IMG/VR virus record: IMGVR_UViG_3300023179_000009
Span: 248,001 to 312,000 of that record
From: a virus
Direction: 5' to 3' (one strand)
Length of the DNA stretch: 64,000 nucleotides
The position numbers were made by a program, and so were the translations under genes. Under the pieces are notes generated by a model, which saw only the letters and a list, made by a program, of their open reading frames with translations, was not told the origin of the DNA and did no database searches. Position 1 is the first letter of the stretch. Every line of letters starts with the position of its first letter. Shown here piece by piece: positions 4,131 to 32,195 of this stretch.

Positions 4131-5192
4131 ATGTGGGGCGATGCTTTTTGTGCTTTTCCATTTAATCGACTAAGAATAACATCCGAAGGCAATGCTTCTT
4201 TTTGTTGTTTTATGAGACCAGACCCTCTCAAAGCAGAGGAGGACGCTTATATCGGTAATGTTTTGAATAATACATTTGATGAGGTTTGGTTTGGAGAAAT
4301 TGCCGAGGAAATAAGACACGAAACACTCAAGGGCAATTTGCACAAAAAATGCCAATGTCCCGGTTGTCCTTATTTGCCGCTTAAAAAACCATACCCGATT
4401 CAGAACTTTATTTACAATGAGTATCCTAATTTCTTAGAAATAGATCTTCCGAATACCCATTGTAATGTTGGCGGATTAAAACCTCACCCGGAACACTCTC
4501 CAGCTTGCGTTATGTGTGAGCGATCAAGTCCAGTTTTCCGCCCAGAGAAAAATCATCTTTTTGAAGTTCTTGAAAAAATTAAGCACATCGTTCCCAACCT
4601 TTATCAAATACACGTTCAGGGAATAGCGGAACCTTTCTATCAAACAAGACAAGATGGATTTTTGTTGTTTGAAATTATGGATATTTTAGAATATGATAAC
4701 CATGCAGAGCAAATTACTTTAAGCATCACTACAAATGGAACCTTATTAAAACAAAATGTACGTGAGCAATATCTTAGGCGTGCTCCAAATTCTATTACTA
4801 ATTTTTCAATAGACGCCGCTACACCAGAAACTTTTAAAGCTATAAGAATATTTGATTGTTTTGATAAAGTTTTGGAGAATATGTATGCTTTTGATCAAGA
4901 GCGTGTTCGTGAGAAGCAGTTCTTGAAAATTCACAATAATATTAACATAATGAATGTGCATGAGGTTGTTGAGATGTGTCGAATTGCACACAAAGCAAGA
5001 GCGGAATTTGTTGAATTTAATCCAACAAATGGATTTAATCATAAGATTCTTGTGAACAAAAAAAATTGTGGTTTGTTTGCAAAAGCTCAACAAGATATTA
5101 TTGAAGAGTGCAATAAACTAGGACAGCCGGTTAACTTTATAAGACCACTTGACTTAAACTTAACCGACCAGTTGATACAACTCACTTTATGA
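4131..5192 (+). CDS. Radical-SAM/SPASM-like protein, paralogue A
   Basis: 353 residues. The N-terminus looks like a SPASM/twitch iron-sulfur module: CAFPFNRLRI...FCCF, then an IGNVLNNTFDEVW helix and CQCPGC. After it comes a TIM-barrel-like part containing LPNTHCNVGG and ACVMCER, where a radical SAM cluster motif would be expected. The cysteine spacing is about C-x14-C-x2-C instead of the usual C-x3-C-x2-C, and the SPASM-like part comes first instead of last. Two paralogues occur at 6183-7283 and 9876-10955. The reaction is unknown; the context suggests glycan or peptide modification. AAAGG lies just before the ATG. The 3' end is duplicated at 6008-6190. Confidence 0.65.
   Translation: MWGDAFCAFPFNRLRITSEGNASFCCFMRPDPLKAEEDAYIGNVLNNTFDEVWFGEIAEEIRHETLKGNLHKKCQCPGCPYLPLKKPYPIQNFIYNEYPNFLEIDLPNTHCNVGGLKPHPEHSPACVMCERSSPVFRPEKNHLFEVLEKIKHIVPNLYQIHVQGIAEPFYQTRQDGFLLFEIMDILEYDNHAEQITLSITTNGTLLKQNVREQYLRRAPNSITNFSIDAATPETFKAIRIFDCFDKVLENMYAFDQERVREKQFLKIHNNINIMNVHEVVEMCRIAHKARAEFVEFNPTNGFNHKILVNKKNCGLFAKAQQDIIEECNKLGQPVNFIRPLDLNLTDQLIQLTL
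5010..5192 (+). repeat. Left copy of a 183-bp duplicated gene end
   Basis: The last 183 bp of radical-SAM-like paralogue A recur at 6008-6190. The first 32 nt match exactly, about 16 nt diverge, about 80 nt are identical, and the tails diverge while encoding similar peptides. The copies flank the minus-strand LAGLIDADG endonuclease gene. Confidence 0.85.
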
Positions 5193-6007: not shown

Positions 6008-6190
6008 GTTGAATTTAATCCAACAAATGGATTTAATCACAAAATTTTAGTTAATGAAAAAAATTGTGGTTTGTTTGCAAAAGCTCAACAAGATATTATT
6101 GAAGAGTGCAATAAACTAGGACAGCCGGTTAACTTTTTGCGTCCTTTAGATTTAGGTTATACCGAACGGCTGATACAGTTGACTATATAG
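6008..6190 (+). pseudogene. Orphan 3' fragment of a radical-SAM-like gene
   Basis: This stretch encodes the last 60 residues of a paralogue-A-like protein (VEFNPTNGFNHKILV ... RLIQLTI, stop TAG at 6188) but has no start or upstream coding sequence. Its tail differs from paralogue A (LGYTERLIQLTI against LNLTDQLIQLTL), so it probably came from a different allele. Between it and the endonuclease start (5961-6007) there is only AT-rich spacer. It overlaps the end of the convergent paralogue B by 8 bp. Confidence 0.85.
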
Positions 6191-28010: not shown

Positions 28011-28038
28011 TTGACGATCACATTTTCTAACGTATCAT
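28011..28038 (+). promoter_or_regulatory. Sigma-70-like promoter of the HTH gene
   Basis: TTGACG (28011-28016) and TATCAT (28033-28038) are 16 bp apart, in a gap directly after an unrelated stop and 29 nt before the GTG start at 28068. Confidence 0.55.
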
Positions 28039-28067: not shown

Positions 28068-29111
28068 GTGGACACTCAAGAAGATTTTGACTTTCTTAAA
28101 GCAATAGAAAACACAGAGCCCGACTTTGTTCGGGCATACCTTGGAGGCATTAAGTCAGATATGTCTAAGACAAATGTTCAACTTACCGTTCGTCAGTGCG
28201 CATCTTTACTTGGCGTTTGCCAGAATACTGTTCTCAACCACATCAAAGCAAACAAATTAAAAGCCAAACTTGTTGAAGGCCAGTGGTTTATACAAGAAAG
28301 CGATTTTGATTCATACAGGTCGTCTATTGTTGTTTCAAAAGGAAAAGATAGTCGTTCGATTATAAGATTTTCTAAAAAATCAAAAGAAACTAAAGTTTCT
28401 TCAAACAAAGAAGAGGTTCATGTCATGGATGAAAAAATTCGTTATCAAAAAGCAACCTCAAGAACTGTCACAGACTTTCTTCACGATTGGCACCGCAACA
28501 AGTCGTCCGGATTTTCCTTGTTGACTATTTGCAGAGACTTTAACCAAGTTTCAGCAAATCCAACCAATGAAAATCAGATGAGCGGGATTTTGTCATCGCT
28601 TAGAAACAAGGGAATAGTTATCCGCAAAGGCAAGGGCATTTACCAAGTTAGCCCTTCAATTGTCGGAGAAATAATTGAAGATCAATCGCATTCAACTACA
28701 GATACCACTCCAGAAACACAGGCAACTTTAATCGACACAGACATTGAGCAAATTCGCACTTCTTTGAAAAAGACTGAGCGAATGGCTGTTGAGGCTTTTA
28801 TAAGAAATCATGCTTCTCCCGGTGTTGATTTTTATTTTACAATCGCTGATGTTGCTCGTGAGTATCCGCATCTTGATCGCAACAAACTCGGCAAAGCTTG
28901 CGTTAACATGTGCCAAACCGGCAAACTTGTAAAGAGCCAAGGTTTGGGAGAATATGTTAAGCAAACTAAAGAAAACCATGTGCAAGAACGAAATCAGAGT
29001 GTCAAGCAACCTTCTACCGATAGCGTTCTTGAAAAAATTAATCGAATCATCAACTCTGACTTTGAAGATAAATTTAAAGAGGAACTTATAAAAGGAATTA
29101 TGCAAAATTAA
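28068..29111 (+). CDS. Helix-turn-helix DNA-binding protein (excisionase/MerR-like head)
   Basis: 347 residues. An N-terminal HTH of the excisionase type (LTVRQCASLLGVCQNTVLNH, then AKLVEGQWFIQESDF) is near residues 40-80. Two winged-helix-like regions seem to follow (ICRDFNQVSANPTNENQMSG ... IVIRKGKGIYQV, and IADVAREYPHLDRNKLGK). The start is GTG at 28068; a later ATG at 28161 would cut off part of the HTH approach. It is the gene immediately left of the Cas12 cassette and may regulate its surroundings (inference). Confidence 0.65.
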   Translation: MDTQEDFDFLKAIENTEPDFVRAYLGGIKSDMSKTNVQLTVRQCASLLGVCQNTVLNHIKANKLKAKLVEGQWFIQESDFDSYRSSIVVSKGKDSRSIIRFSKKSKETKVSSNKEEVHVMDEKIRYQKATSRTVTDFLHDWHRNKSSGFSLLTICRDFNQVSANPTNENQMSGILSSLRNKGIVIRKGKGIYQVSPSIVGEIIEDQSHSTTDTTPETQATLIDTDIEQIRTSLKKTERMAVEAFIRNHASPGVDFYFTIADVAREYPHLDRNKLGKACVNMCQTGKLVKSQGLGEYVKQTKENHVQERNQSVKQPSTDSVLEKINRIINSDFEDKFKEELIKGIMQN

Positions 29112-29117
29112 TTTTTC

Positions 29118-29154
29118 ATGGAAAAAAATCTTTTACCAAAAGAAGAACTAAATC
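29118..29154 (+). repeat. Left 37-bp direct repeat bounding the Cas12-CRISPR cassette
   Basis: Identical over 37 bp to 31770-31806, the first 12 codons of the MscL-like gene. Here the frame stops after two more codons (CTA TGT TAG), leaving a 14-codon remnant. The match begins exactly at the ATG and ends one base before the Cas12 start region. Confidence 0.92.
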
Positions 29155-29155
29155 T

Positions 29156-30781
29156 ATGTTAGAACAAGAAGAAAATAATTGTGTTGTTATTAAAGTTCCA
29201 TTGATTTGTAACCAAAAGCAAATTAAATTGCTTAAAAGTAGATTTAATTCTTCTAGAGTTTTTTATAATTCTTGTTTAGCAGAGTGCGAAAGAAGAAGGA
29301 AAATTCTTGTCGTTCATCCTAATCGTATCGAAGCCAATAGAATATACAAAGAATTAAAAGAAAAAGACAAACAAGTTAAAGAAAAAAAAATTACTAGAAG
29401 TTCTTATGACTTTAAAAAGAACAAAGAACTCTATAGTTCTCTTTATCGAAAATCTGAGAGGGAGACGGGTTTTTATTTAAGATCTAGTGCCACAAATGAT
29501 ATGACAAATTCTTTAGAACAATGGGTTTCGAATGTAAGAAATGGAACCAATATTGAAAAAGAGTTGGATAGCCACACCTGTATGACTTTAATGGATCGAG
29601 CATTTAAAGCATCTAAAAGAGTTTTAAATGCTCGATGGGTATTTAATAAGAAAAAAAACACTTACATAAAACCATCGGTTCAGTTTAAGAGTGTAAAAAA
29701 ACCAATCCTTAGCATTTCTAGCAAAAGCCAAAAATCTTCTCTTAAATTTTTATTAGAAAGCAAAACAATTCGGGTTCCTCATGTCGTTTGGACAATTAAC
29801 AAAAAAGCAATATGGCCTATTTTAAATTTGGACCCAATTGATCCTTATCATAACTTTTTAATTGAAAACTACCACAAAGTGGGTCATATTAAATTGTGTC
29901 GTGAAGAAATTAAAGGAAAGTGGGTTTATTCTATGCAGGCTACTTGTAGCATAGATTCAATGAGTAAATTTTATTTGGGAGTTAAACCAAAATATTTAGG
30001 TGAAGGTGTTTGTGGAGTTGATATTGGAGCAAGCGACTTTGCCTTTTCAGCACCGAACCACTCGGAAATTACAAAATTATTTCCGGAGTTTGATTTAGGT
30101 GTTGAGAAAAAGTTAAAGCAACTACACAAACAAAATTCTCGTATGCTCAGACAGAACAACCCAAACAATTTTGAGCCTGATACTTGGGAAAAAAATCCCA
30201 ATGGCAAACTAATTAAGAAATTTGGATCACAAAAAAAGGGTTGCAAAAATTTTATTAGCAAAAGGCACAAAAAAGTGCTACTTCAGATGAAGGAAATTTA
30301 TAGAAAACTCAAAGAAAGTCGTAGCATTTCTCATAAAAAAGCGGCAATTCGCTTACGTTCAAAAGCCGACAATCTAAGAATGGAAGATCTCAACTATTTT
30401 TCGTGGCAAAAAGGCGGCATGGGCAAATCATCCCAAATACGCTCTCCCGGACTATTTAGTAAAACTTTAGAGAACACATTCAAAAAAACCGGCGGTAAGG
30501 TTGAAAAAATTGATCCTTTTAAATCTTGTCTTTCGCAAATTTGTCCCAATTGCGGAAGCAAAAAAAAGAAAGAAAGAAGTCAGGATTGGCACGAGTGCGA
30601 AGAGTGCGGTTACGGTAAGAAATTTCCAGTTCAAAGAGACTTGAATTCTGCTATGCTTGCGTGTACAGTTGATTTGAAAACTCAAACTGTCGATGTGGAA
30701 GAAGCCAAAAAACTTCTTCGGGATAGAGGACCGATCCTGCGGACGACATCGGCTAGTTTTAAAAAAGGTGCGAAGAACTAG
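29156..30781 (+). CDS. Compact Cas12-like (TnpB-related) RNA-guided nuclease
   Basis: 541 residues. A split RuvC nuclease with all expected residues: RuvC-I GVDIGASDFAF (Asp289), RuvC-II LRMEDLNYFSW (Glu410), a zinc ribbon CPNCGS...CEECGY (Cys463, 466, 481, 484), and RuvC-III VQRDLNSAM (Asp495). The N-terminal 280 residues are basic and helical, as in REC/wedge regions of small Cas12 proteins. Size and layout fit hypercompact type V effectors (Cas12f or V-U groups); the subtype cannot be set by eye. A CRISPR array and a candidate tracrRNA follow. No adaptation genes are present. It starts 2 nt after the left direct repeat. A free-standing TnpB is less likely because of the array. Confidence 0.9.
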   Translation: MLEQEENNCVVIKVPLICNQKQIKLLKSRFNSSRVFYNSCLAECERRRKILVVHPNRIEANRIYKELKEKDKQVKEKKITRSSYDFKKNKELYSSLYRKSERETGFYLRSSATNDMTNSLEQWVSNVRNGTNIEKELDSHTCMTLMDRAFKASKRVLNARWVFNKKKNTYIKPSVQFKSVKKPILSISSKSQKSSLKFLLESKTIRVPHVVWTINKKAIWPILNLDPIDPYHNFLIENYHKVGHIKLCREEIKGKWVYSMQATCSIDSMSKFYLGVKPKYLGEGVCGVDIGASDFAFSAPNHSEITKLFPEFDLGVEKKLKQLHKQNSRMLRQNNPNNFEPDTWEKNPNGKLIKKFGSQKKGCKNFISKRHKKVLLQMKEIYRKLKESRSISHKKAAIRLRSKADNLRMEDLNYFSWQKGGMGKSSQIRSPGLFSKTLENTFKKTGGKVEKIDPFKSCLSQICPNCGSKKKKERSQDWHECEECGYGKKFPVQRDLNSAMLACTVDLKTQTVDVEEAKKLLRDRGPILRTTSASFKKGAKN

Positions 30782-30980
30782 TACTCACTCTAATTGAAAA
30801 ATTAGTTTGCCGAAAAATCTACTTTTTAGAAAAACACCTAAAGAGTCAGAGTACCTCGTCCGTGAAACTACGAGCGATTTAGAATGACAGCCCTCATCGG
30901 AATAGTTTTAAATCGTCGTGGTCTCGTCTTTTGTTGCGAGAGGTACGGTGGCGTTAAAAACCGCCGTACCTCTCGTTTTT
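30782..30980 (+). ncRNA. Candidate tracrRNA
   Basis: This 200-nt region lies between the Cas12 stop and the CRISPR leader. CTCGTCTTTTGTT at 30923-30935 complements repeat bases AACAAAAGATGAG over 13 positions (one G-U). A second partial anti-repeat, TGACAGCCCTCATC at 30885-30898, complements the GATGAG...TGTCA part of the repeat. The 5' part folds: GTACTC ACTCT with AGAGT CA GAGTAC, and CTCGT (30855-30859) with ACGAG (30870-30874). It ends at a strong terminator. No separate promoter is clear, so it may be the 3' UTR of the cas mRNA. Expression is not proven. Confidence 0.65.
30937..30980 (+). terminator. Rho-independent terminator of the cas/tracrRNA unit
   Basis: CGAGAGGTACGGTGG pairs with CCGCCGTACCTCTCG (15 bp, one G-U) across a 9-nt loop, and five T follow. 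It begins one base after the 3' anti-repeat. Confidence 0.88.
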
Positions 30981-31073
30981 ACTTAAATACTGTGTTGTCA
31001 ATGATTTACAGAACTCTTATTTTGTTTTTTGATATTTGATGGATCTAAATTTTAACAACCTCTCGCAAAGGTC

Positions 31074-31102
31074 TTGTTTTTTGTTGTGGTTTTTTGTATA
31101 AT
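31074..31102 (+). promoter_or_regulatory. Pre-crRNA promoter in the CRISPR leader
   Basis: TTGTTT (31074-31079), a 17-bp spacer and TATAAT (31097-31102) form a good sigma-70 promoter. The expected start, about 31109, is about 5 nt before the first repeat. The leader between the terminator and the repeat is AT-rich and holds no gene. Confidence 0.75.
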
Positions 31103-31113
31103 TTTAATGTGCT

Positions 31114-31772
31114 ATTGCAGTACTTAAAACAAAAGATGAGTATGTCAAGTGGTCTCTAGGGCATCGTTGGCGTCTCGGTAAACCAAATTGCAGTACTTAA
31201 AACAAAAGATGAGTATGTCAAGAGGGCATCGTTGGCGTCTCGGTAAACCAAATTGCAGTACTTAAAACAAAAGATGAGTATGTCAAGGACATTGAGAAGG
31301 TACTCGGAATCTTGTTCGGGGGATTGCAGTACTTAAAACAAAAGATGAGTATGTCAAGGTGCTGCTCAGGCGTTAGTGGAGGTTTGTTGGTAGCCAATTG
31401 CAGTACTTAAAACAAAAGATGAGTATGTCAAGAATTAGCGGCAGTACGAGCCACCGACCATCAGCAGATTGCAGTACTTAAAACAAAAGATGAGTATGTC
31501 AAGGAAACCCAAGTCCATAGACGCAAGAGGCAAAAACGGATTGCAGTACTTAAAACAAAAGATGAGTATGTCAAGTACCGATGGGCTACCAAAAACATCG
31601 CCAGGGCGGCAAAATTGCAGTACTTAAAACAAAAGATGAGTATGTCAAGATGACCAAGGCAAAAACCCGCCATTGCAGTACTTAAAACAAAAGATGAGTA
31701 TGTCAAGGTCAAGTGGCGTATTATTAGACAACGTGAGTTCTCATTGGATTTCAGTGCTTAAAACAAAAGATG
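31114..31772 (+). CRISPR. CRISPR array: nine 36-bp repeats plus one degenerate terminal repeat
   Basis: Nine identical 36-bp repeats start at 31114, 31187, 31252, 31323, 31397, 31468, 31540, 31614 and 31672. Each begins ATTGCAGTACTTAAAAC and ends GATGAGTATGTCAAG. A tenth at 31748-31772 keeps 23 of its first 25 bases and then becomes the MscL-like gene. Spacers are 37, 29, 35, 38, 35, 36, 38, 22 and 40 nt. Spacer 2 equals the last 29 nt of spacer 1. Spacers 1, 5 and 7 are about 54-57 % GC against an AT-rich phage. The degenerate last repeat and the promoter place the leader on the left, so the crRNA runs on the + strand, the same as cas12. Confidence 0.98.
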
Positions 31773-31806
31773 GAAAAAAATCTTTTACCAAAAGAAGAAC
31801 TAAATC
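31770..31806 (+). repeat. Right 37-bp direct repeat bounding the Cas12-CRISPR cassette
   Basis: Identical to 29118-29154. The final, truncated CRISPR repeat supplies the A of the ATG, so the cassette junction falls exactly at the start codon. Confidence 0.92.
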
Positions 31807-32195
31807 GTTATAAGCAATTTGCTTTTAAAGACGATATGTTCAAATTGGCTATAGGTTTTATTTTAGGCAATTCTTTCAATAATGTGGTTGGTGGAATTAG
31901 CAGTTTTCTAATTATGCCGGTGGTTAATTTTTTAACTACACAAACAGGAGAGAATTGGAGAACTATTGTTTTTTCGCCAGTGAGTGGTTTGGATTTTGAA
32001 CTAGGAAAACTTTTAGGAACTTTTGTAGATTTTTTACTAACATCTATTGTTCTTTATGTAATTTACGTTAAAATTTTAGGGTCAATAAAAAAACAAGAAG
32101 AAGATTGTAATTTGAAACAATGCAATCGTTGTCTAAGTTTAATTCATGTTGACGCAACAAGATGCAAGTTCTGCACCAGCCCAATTAAAAAATAA
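31770..32195 (+). CDS. MscL-like mechanosensitive channel with zinc-ribbon tail
   Basis: 141 residues. The first helix FKDDMFKLAIGFILGNSFNNVV corresponds to MscL TM1 with its small-residue face; the periplasmic loop and TM2 (FVDFLLTSIVLYVIYVKIL) follow. After TM2 there is an added CNRCLSLIHVDATRCKFC zinc ribbon, absent from typical MscL. It would form a membrane channel that opens under tension. Its start codon now abuts the last CRISPR repeat with no Shine-Dalgarno, so expression may have changed after the cassette inserted. The end is 1 bp before the RNA ligase start. Confidence 0.82.
   Translation: MEKNLLPKEELNRYKQFAFKDDMFKLAIGFILGNSFNNVVGGISSFLIMPVVNFLTTQTGENWRTIVFSPVSGLDFELGKLLGTFVDFLLTSIVLYVIYVKILGSIKKQEEDCNLKQCNRCLSLIHVDATRCKFCTSPIKK

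What the first reader, a model, noticed from the sequence alone, without database searches (positions are those of the whole stretch)
29156..31772. Phage-borne compact Cas12 system: 541-residue nuclease, candidate tracrRNA and CRISPR array, without adaptation genes
The nuclease keeps all three RuvC acidic residues (Asp289, Glu410, Asp495) and a CxxC...CxxC zinc ribbon, so it should cut. It is immediately followed by a structured RNA with anti-repeats, a terminator, a promoter and a nine-repeat array, all on one strand in 2.6 kb. No cas1, cas2 or cas4 is seen within the window. The size is between Cas12f and CasPhi/Cas12 lambda, and the subtype cannot be assigned by eye; it may be a new branch of the type V miniature effectors.
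Basis: partly seen in the sequence, partly recalled or inferred. Interest (0 to 1): 0.93.

Follow-up and report, generated by a model that had tools for sequence, protein, structure and literature searches.

The report
Phage TnpB-derived mini CRISPR-Cas12 system
A 459-kb giant bacteriophage carries a complete-looking, 2.6-kb RNA-guided DNA-cutting system (a small Cas12-like nuclease descended from transposon TnpB, a partner RNA and a nine-repeat guide array) that seems to have been inserted as one cassette, which makes it a rare, divergent member of a known kind.

Summary
Window 29156-30781 encodes an intact 541-aa nuclease with RuvC D289/E410/D495 and a zinc ribbon. It is followed on the same strand by a strongly folded RNA ending in a terminator, a TATAAT box and nine identical 36-nt repeats. 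The host is a 459-kb phage record (terminase, rIIA) with no Cas1 or Cas2 anywhere.

Sequence and structure place the protein with TnpB-type nucleases (about 21-31% identity, homologous over its full length), not with Cas12f, Cas12j or Cas-lambda. It joins one TnpB group (motif R-x-NNP-x-N[FY]) with 100/100 support against LaTranC, Cas12n and ISDra2 TnpB, but on a very long branch, and a deeper placement is not rejected. No close relative was found.

A 13-nt anti-repeat (30923-30935) lies just before the terminator, suggesting a split guide: tracrRNA plus crRNA. The nuclease-RNA-array unit is bounded by exact 37-nt copies of the start of mscL; an 88%-identical phage contig has mscL but neither the unit nor an adjacent helix-turn-helix gene.

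Spacers are 52% GC against 36% for the phage, match nothing searched, and do not target this phage. I read it as an independent TnpB-to-Cas12 system borne by a phage: a new variant of a known kind. Activity and targets are untested.

The parts
28011..28038 (+). Promoter-like TTGACG-16-TATCAT ahead of the HTH gene; possible promoter of HTH gene plus nuclease
   Evidence: 10 of 12 consensus matches; consensus scan only, not enriched over shuffles
28068..29111 (+). 347-aa helix-turn-helix protein (HTH_17), absent from the relative L003; possible regulator. C-terminal tail shared with a 322-aa protein of L003
   Evidence: no relative in viral contigs
29118..29154 (+). 37-nt direct repeat, copy 1: exact duplicate of the first 37 nt of mscL; opens a 14-codon leader ORF (29118-29162) overlapping the nuclease start
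29156..30781 (+). 541-aa TnpB-lineage Cas12-like RNA-guided nuclease; RuvC D289/E410/D495 and CxxC...CxxC zinc ribbon
30690..30980 (+). Candidate tracrRNA (5' end unknown, overlaps the 3' end of the nuclease ORF)
   Evidence: (z = -6.7)
30868..30921 (+). 18-bp imperfect hairpin of the candidate tracrRNA, directly before the anti-repeat
30923..30935 (+). Anti-repeat CTCGTCTTTTGTT, pairs with AACAAAAGATGAG of the repeat (12 Watson-Crick + 1 G-U)
   Evidence: 0 of 166 control segments reach 13 pairs; duplex energy reached by 1 of 166
30937..30980 (+). Intrinsic terminator hairpin (CGAGAGGTACGGTGG...CCGCCGTACCTCTCG) followed by TTTTT
31097..31102 (+). TATAAT box 11 nt before the first repeat; likely promoter of the array
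   Evidence: one of two TATAAT on this strand in 4.4 kb
31114..31707 (+). CRISPR array: nine identical 36-nt repeats ATTGCAGTACTTAAAACAAAAGATGAGTATGTCAAG, spacers of 37, 29, 35, 38, 35, 36, 38 and 22 nt
31708..31747 (+). Last spacer, 40 nt
31748..31772 (+). Degenerate, truncated terminal repeat that runs into the mscL start codon
31770..31806 (+). 37-nt direct repeat, copy 2 = native 5' end of mscL
31770..32195 (+). mscL-like gene (141 aa) that the cassette sits against; 95% identical protein in L003

Best explanation
This is a phage-encoded, interference-only type V CRISPR-Cas system whose effector is an independently domesticated TnpB (V-U / TnpB-CRISPR-intermediate kind). Proposed mechanism: the array is transcribed from a promoter at its leader. 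Each crRNA repeat pairs with the anti-repeat of a tracrRNA encoded at and just after the 3' end of the nuclease gene. The duplex is trimmed (host RNase III is the likely candidate, since no phage RNase III was found) and loaded into the 541-aa nuclease, which cuts double-stranded DNA matching the spacer next to a PAM. Shown here: the anatomy, an intact active site, homology to TnpB, the anti-repeat, the absence of adaptation genes, and a cassette-like insertion beside mscL. Inferred: expression, processing, cleavage, and the use against rival mobile DNA or host genes of higher G+C than the phage. New spacers would come by recombination or acquisition in trans, not by its own machinery.
For: Intact ORF with all RuvC acids and zinc ribbon. 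Full-length homology to TnpB and best solved-structure neighbours TnpB, Cas12f, Cas12p and LaTranC (model pLDDT 85.7). Nine exact repeats. Folded RNA with an anti-repeat just before a terminator. TATAAT 11 nt before the array. Nuclease, RNA and array lie in one unit bounded by exact 37-nt repeats, with an 88%-identical relative lacking it. No Cas1 or Cas2 in the record. Spacers are 52% GC against 36% for the window, 0 of 20,000 random placements as high, and none matches the phage itself.
Against: No relative shares the repeat or the RNA, so the tracrRNA cannot be tested by covariation, and its duplex energy alone is reached by 1 of 166 control segments. No spacer target was found. Homologs can land beside unrelated arrays (L079 against L078). 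Spacer lengths of 22-40 nt and the S1/S2 overlap suggest array rearrangement. PAM, expression and cleavage are untested.
Confidence: 0.78

Rival explanations
1. A plain TnpB (IS605-type remnant) landed beside an orphan CRISPR array; the array serves a host Cas effector and the nuclease uses its own omegaRNA.
For: The protein is TnpB-like. A homologous element sits right beside a CRISPR array in L079, while its 83%-identical copy in L078 does not. Huge phages are reported to carry effector-less arrays (PMC7162821).
Against: Nuclease and array are one unit between 37-nt repeats. An anti-repeat to this very repeat lies between them. No tnpA or IS605 end is visible. The protein is far more diverged than the transposon TnpBs (branch 2.3 against a median of 0.4).
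Confidence: 0.12
2. A decaying relic: the array no longer acquires spacers, its lengths are irregular, and the system is not used.
For: Spacers of 22-40 nt, S2 a truncated copy of S1, degenerate end repeat. No targets found.
Against: Nine letter-identical repeats, an open 541-codon frame with all catalytic residues, an intact terminator and an intact -10 box.
Confidence: 0.08
3. A guide-dependent silencer or host-takeover tool rather than a cutter: the complex binds host promoters or genes, as reported for some phage arrays and for Cas12m.
For: Phage arrays can target host transcription and translation genes (PMC7162821). Spacer GC is above that of the phage and would fit a bacterial chromosome.
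Against: All three RuvC acids are present, unlike naturally inactive effectors. No spacer target was identified, so host and rival DNA cannot be told apart.
Confidence: 0.2

Closest known systems
TnpB of IS200/IS605 elements, R-x-NNP-x-N[FY] group (Scytonema, Nostoc, Acidithiobacillus, Ktedonobacter; viral L062-L064)
   Same: Full-length homology, about 21-31% identity, the same RuvC core, joined with 100/100 support against LaTranC, RdCas12n and ISDra2 TnpB
   Different: Has a CRISPR array and an anti-repeat RNA, no tnpA, about 50 extra residues mostly in the N-terminal half (49-55, 79-95, 158-162, 167-172, 201-205, 217-222), a canonical CxxC on both sides of the zinc ribbon, and a very long branch
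LaTranC (TranC, transposon-CRISPR intermediates; Jin et al. 2025, doi 10.1016/j.cell.2025.09.004, seen here by title and PDB entries only)
   Same: TnpB-like effector of similar size (478 aa in the PDB entry); best PDB match of the family profile (5e-15). By title the concept is RNA splitting into two pieces
   Different: Outside the clade that holds the window protein in the RuvC tree, although the AU test does not reject moving the window to that side (p = 0.46)
Cas12f (V-F) and candidate effectors Cas12u2/u4 (PADLOC)
   Same: Similar size, similar fold (Foldseek 1e-12), HMM hits of 41-44 bits
   Different: The best-scoring stretches cover mainly the RuvC/zinc part, and ordinary TnpBs score as well or better, so the hits are not specific
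Array-adjacent TnpB-like nucleases of other viruses: L063 (512-kb phage), L074, L103
   Same: Homologous nuclease with a repeat array directly 3' on the same strand
   Different: Different repeats, no significant anti-repeat, and scattered on the tree (at least 4 changes of state, L078/79 included)
CasPhi (Cas12j) and Cas-lambda of huge phages
   Same: Phage-borne, compact, array without adaptation genes
   Different: Cas-lambda is only a weak structural match (TM-score normalised to the query 0.31-0.38, E at best 2e-5) and Cas12j is not among the 50 best. This one has a candidate tracrRNA and is smaller

Membership tests
Type V CRISPR-Cas (Cas12) interference module | RuvC nuclease with D...E...D and a zinc-ribbon (target nucleic-acid binding) region | tested here: met
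Type V CRISPR-Cas (Cas12) interference module | Adjacent CRISPR array of conserved repeats and unique spacers | tested here: met
   the S1/S2 overlap is the one exception to uniqueness
Type V CRISPR-Cas (Cas12) interference module | Guide RNA made of crRNA, with or without tracrRNA, bound by the effector | tested here: inconclusive
   anti-repeat and folded RNA found; binding not testable here
Type V CRISPR-Cas (Cas12) interference module | Guide-dependent DNA cleavage or binding | not testable with these tools
   needs a bench assay
Transposon TnpB (IS200/IS605, IS607) | Scores above the curated TnpB family cut-off | tested here: not met
   guided_TnpB 77.2 bits against cut-off 100; relatives L106 122.5 and L062 107.3 bits, though array-adjacent relatives and L080 also fall below 100
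Transposon TnpB (IS200/IS605, IS607) | Neighbouring tnpA or transposon ends with an omegaRNA and one 3' guide | tested here: not met
   no tnpA among the neighbouring ORFs; an array follows instead. The absence of cryptic IS605 ends was judged by eye only
Cas12f (V-F) | Specific full-length match to Cas12f profiles | tested here: not met
   43 bits, mainly C-terminal, no better than ordinary TnpBs
Cas12j / Cas-lambda | Closest structural neighbour | tested here: not met
   Cas-lambda TM-score 0.31-0.38, Cas12j not among the 50 best; TnpB and Cas12f come first
TranC (TnpB-CRISPR intermediates) | Lies in one of the described TranC clades | tested here: inconclusive
   LaTranC falls outside the window's clade, but the AU test is not decisive; other TranC clades were not available
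TranC (TnpB-CRISPR intermediates) | Effector works with the split RNA (tracrRNA + crRNA) | not testable with these tools
   anatomy only

The most novel reading that the evidence does not exclude
A separate, undescribed TnpB-to-Cas12 conversion fixed in a giant phage. The guide RNA has been split into tracrRNA and crRNA, and the whole 2.6-kb unit moves as a cassette that restores the start of the gene it lands in (37-nt duplicate of mscL).
Probability: 0.4. Interest if true: 0.72.

Novelty: new variant of a known kind. Interest (0 to 1): 0.58.

Why it matters
The origin of type V CRISPR from TnpB is thought to have happened about 50 times, by coupling TnpB to arrays; one proposed route is splitting one guide RNA into two. 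Here is a compact case on a phage in which nuclease, candidate tracrRNA, terminator, promoter and array fit in 2.6 kb, with a near relative that shows the site without it. The split-RNA step can be tested directly with one plasmid, and the nuclease (541 aa) is small enough to interest genome editors. The relatives found (L063, L074, L103) suggest that phages may be a place where this conversion happens repeatedly.

Tried and rejected
Close relatives of the nuclease in IMG/VR: none. Exact repeat in IMG/VR: none. Spacer targets in INPHARED phages, PLSDB plasmids, IMG/VR (S1/S2 core and S3 only) and the phage's own genome: none. Rfam match to the RNA: only a chance hit. PDB match to the single sequence: none useful. 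Cas12f assignment from PADLOC: rejected because ordinary TnpBs score equally. Grouping of the window with L103 (95/96): treated as possible long-branch attraction. The idea that all array-adjacent relatives form one phage CRISPR clade: rejected; at least four changes of state on the tree, and L079 is a TnpB element that landed beside an array. The 16-nt anti-repeat at 31013-31028 lies after the terminator and is weaker; the one at 30923-30935 is preferred. Phage RNase III: none found with PF14622. Primary papers by Altae-Tran 2023 and Tordoff 2025: not held.

Full report
WHAT IS THERE. The ORF at 29156-30781 is 541 aa and intact. Pfam finds the Cas12f1-like TNB domain (5.9e-9) and a sub-threshold OrfB helix-turn-helix. 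NCBIfam's guided_TnpB matches residues 65-500 at 77 bits, under its cut-off of 100. PADLOC gives Cas12u4, Cas12f and Cas12u2 at 41-44 bits, mainly over the C-terminal RuvC part. Ordinary TnpB relatives score as well on the same models, so those names carry no subtype information. Asp289, Glu410 and Asp495 are invariant across 80 aligned proteins. The zinc ribbon is C463/C466...C481/C484. The same four positions are cysteine in 38 of 79 relatives, but none has CxxC spacing on both sides.

THE RNA AND ARRAY. Nine identical 36-nt repeats begin at 31114, followed by a degenerate, truncated copy that ends in the mscL start codon. Spacers are 37, 29, 35, 38, 35, 36, 38, 22 and 40 nt. S2 equals the last 29 nt of S1, best read as rearrangement. 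Between nuclease and array, RNA 30690-30990 folds with z = -6.7 and ends in a strong terminator (30937-30980). Immediately before the terminator is CTCGTCTTTTGTT (30923-30935), which pairs over 13 nt with AACAAAAGATGAG of the repeat. None of 166 control segments from the same window reached 13 contiguous pairs, 1 of 166 reached the same duplex energy, and 0 of 40 shuffled repeats did. A TATAAT box ends 11 nt before the first repeat. The reading is a tracrRNA that overlaps the nuclease 3' end, in the place where TnpB encodes its omegaRNA, plus a separately transcribed array. This is inference from sequence; no covariation test was possible because no relative shares it.

THE CARRIER. The window lies at 248,001-312,000 of a 458,813-bp IMG/VR record. 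Terminase large subunit, rIIA and other phage genes confirm a phage. Its terminase is nearest to that of a 595-kb uncultured phage. The record has no Cas1 or Cas2, one weak sub-cut-off Cas4/RecB-like match far away, and no RNase III by PF14622.

INSERTION. A contig with 88% identity to the window (L003, IMGVR_UViG_3300042197_004429) has the flanking genes in the same order but only 5 nt between ORF384 and mscL, and its 177-kb contig has no homolog of the nuclease. In the window, the gap holds an HTH gene with its own promoter-like site, then an exact 37-nt copy of the mscL start (29118-29154), the nuclease, the RNA, the array, and mscL with the second copy (31770-31806). So the nuclease-RNA-array unit is bounded by 37-nt direct repeats and leaves mscL intact. 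Whether the HTH gene came with it is unknown. Loss in L003 is possible, but recombination between the 37-nt repeats alone would not remove the HTH gene. The first copy opens a 14-codon leader whose stop overlaps the nuclease start, which could couple translation (inference).

KINSHIP. A single-protein scan of IMG/VR found nothing. A profile from distant TnpBs found 44 viral and 80 genomic relatives, at about 21-36% identity over the matched stretches. In a 60-row tree the window is on a very long branch (2.31 against a median of 0.4) and pairs with the equally long L103 (95/96, flagged as possible long-branch attraction). A RuvC tree puts it with this TnpB group at 100/100 against LaTranC, RdCas12n and ISDra2 TnpB, but moving it to their side is not rejected (p = 0.46). 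An AlphaFold model (pLDDT 85.7, pTM 0.80) is nearest to ISDra2 TnpB, Cas12f, ISFba1 TnpB, Cas12p and LaTranC by Foldseek, and far from Cas-lambda.

ARRAY-LINKED RELATIVES. Five homolog loci have repeat arrays directly downstream: L063 (512-kb phage), L074, L079 and L103/L104 (the same locus). None of the genomic loci does (Fisher p = 0.014 on dereplicated counts; sampling is uneven). L079 is a warning: its nuclease unit is 83% identical to L078 up to an omegaRNA-like hairpin, and the flanks then differ completely, so that TnpB landed beside a foreign array. Only the window shows a significant anti-repeat.

TARGETS. Spacers are 52% GC against 36% for the window (0 of 20,000 random placements as high), so they probably come from other replicons. 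None matches the phage itself, INPHARED phages or PLSDB plasmids; S1/S2 and S3 cores are absent from IMG/VR. Function against rival mobile DNA or against host genes cannot be separated.

LITERATURE. Huge phages carry type V-U, V-F and CasPhi systems, almost all without Cas1/Cas2/Cas4 and with short arrays (median six repeats), some aimed at other phages or host genes (PMC7162821). About 50 independent TnpB-to-Cas12 events are inferred, with tracrRNA arising many times (PMC12669027). TnpB-like proteins beside arrays occur in landfill phages (PMC12607003). The split-RNA idea is the subject of Jin et al. 2025 (doi 10.1016/j.cell.2025.09.004), which I could see only as a citation and through PDB entries for LaTranC.

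VERDICT. The system is a divergent, phage-borne member of the TnpB-derived type V kind with a candidate split guide RNA and a cassette-like insertion: unusual and testable, but not a new category.

Noticed in passing
L078:5574-5940: Downstream of a TnpB-like gene, alternating short boxes GAGCAGCCG and GAGAGCACCG, mostly with gaps of about 8-15 nt, resembling a TIGR-type dual-spacer array; no Tas gene was looked for by profile.
   Followed up: partly
L079:5584-5960: TnpB element with an omegaRNA-like end inserted right beside a CRISPR array (36-nt repeats, 30-nt spacers); the 83%-identical element in L078 has other flanks.
   Followed up: partly
L063:5674-5960: A 512-kb phage with a 542-aa homologous nuclease followed by four copies of CTTACGGTTGGTGCTCAGGCCAGCAGCGGTTGTCAG (one truncated) and irregular spacers; a second phage-borne candidate.
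   Followed up: partly
17390, 48339, 50496, 56964, 57540, 60149: Repeated motif TTTGATACCAACTAGA, possibly a phage promoter or other control site.
   Followed up: no
28068-29111 and L003:13428-14396: Two otherwise different HTH proteins of sister phages share a roughly 45-aa C-terminal tail (VLxxIxxI...LIKxxM); each lies where the other phage has none.
   Followed up: partly
5010-5190 and 6008-6188: A 181-nt direct repeat (85% identical), the first copy at the 3' end of a 353-aa ORF that looks like a radical-SAM protein.
   Followed up: no
L002 (G000:25828-26280, minus strand): A second TnpB-like fragment with an internal TAG in the same phage genome; looks decayed.
   Followed up: partly
31770-32195: A phage-borne MscL-like mechanosensitive channel with an added zinc-finger-like tail, found in only one other viral contig.
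   Followed up: no
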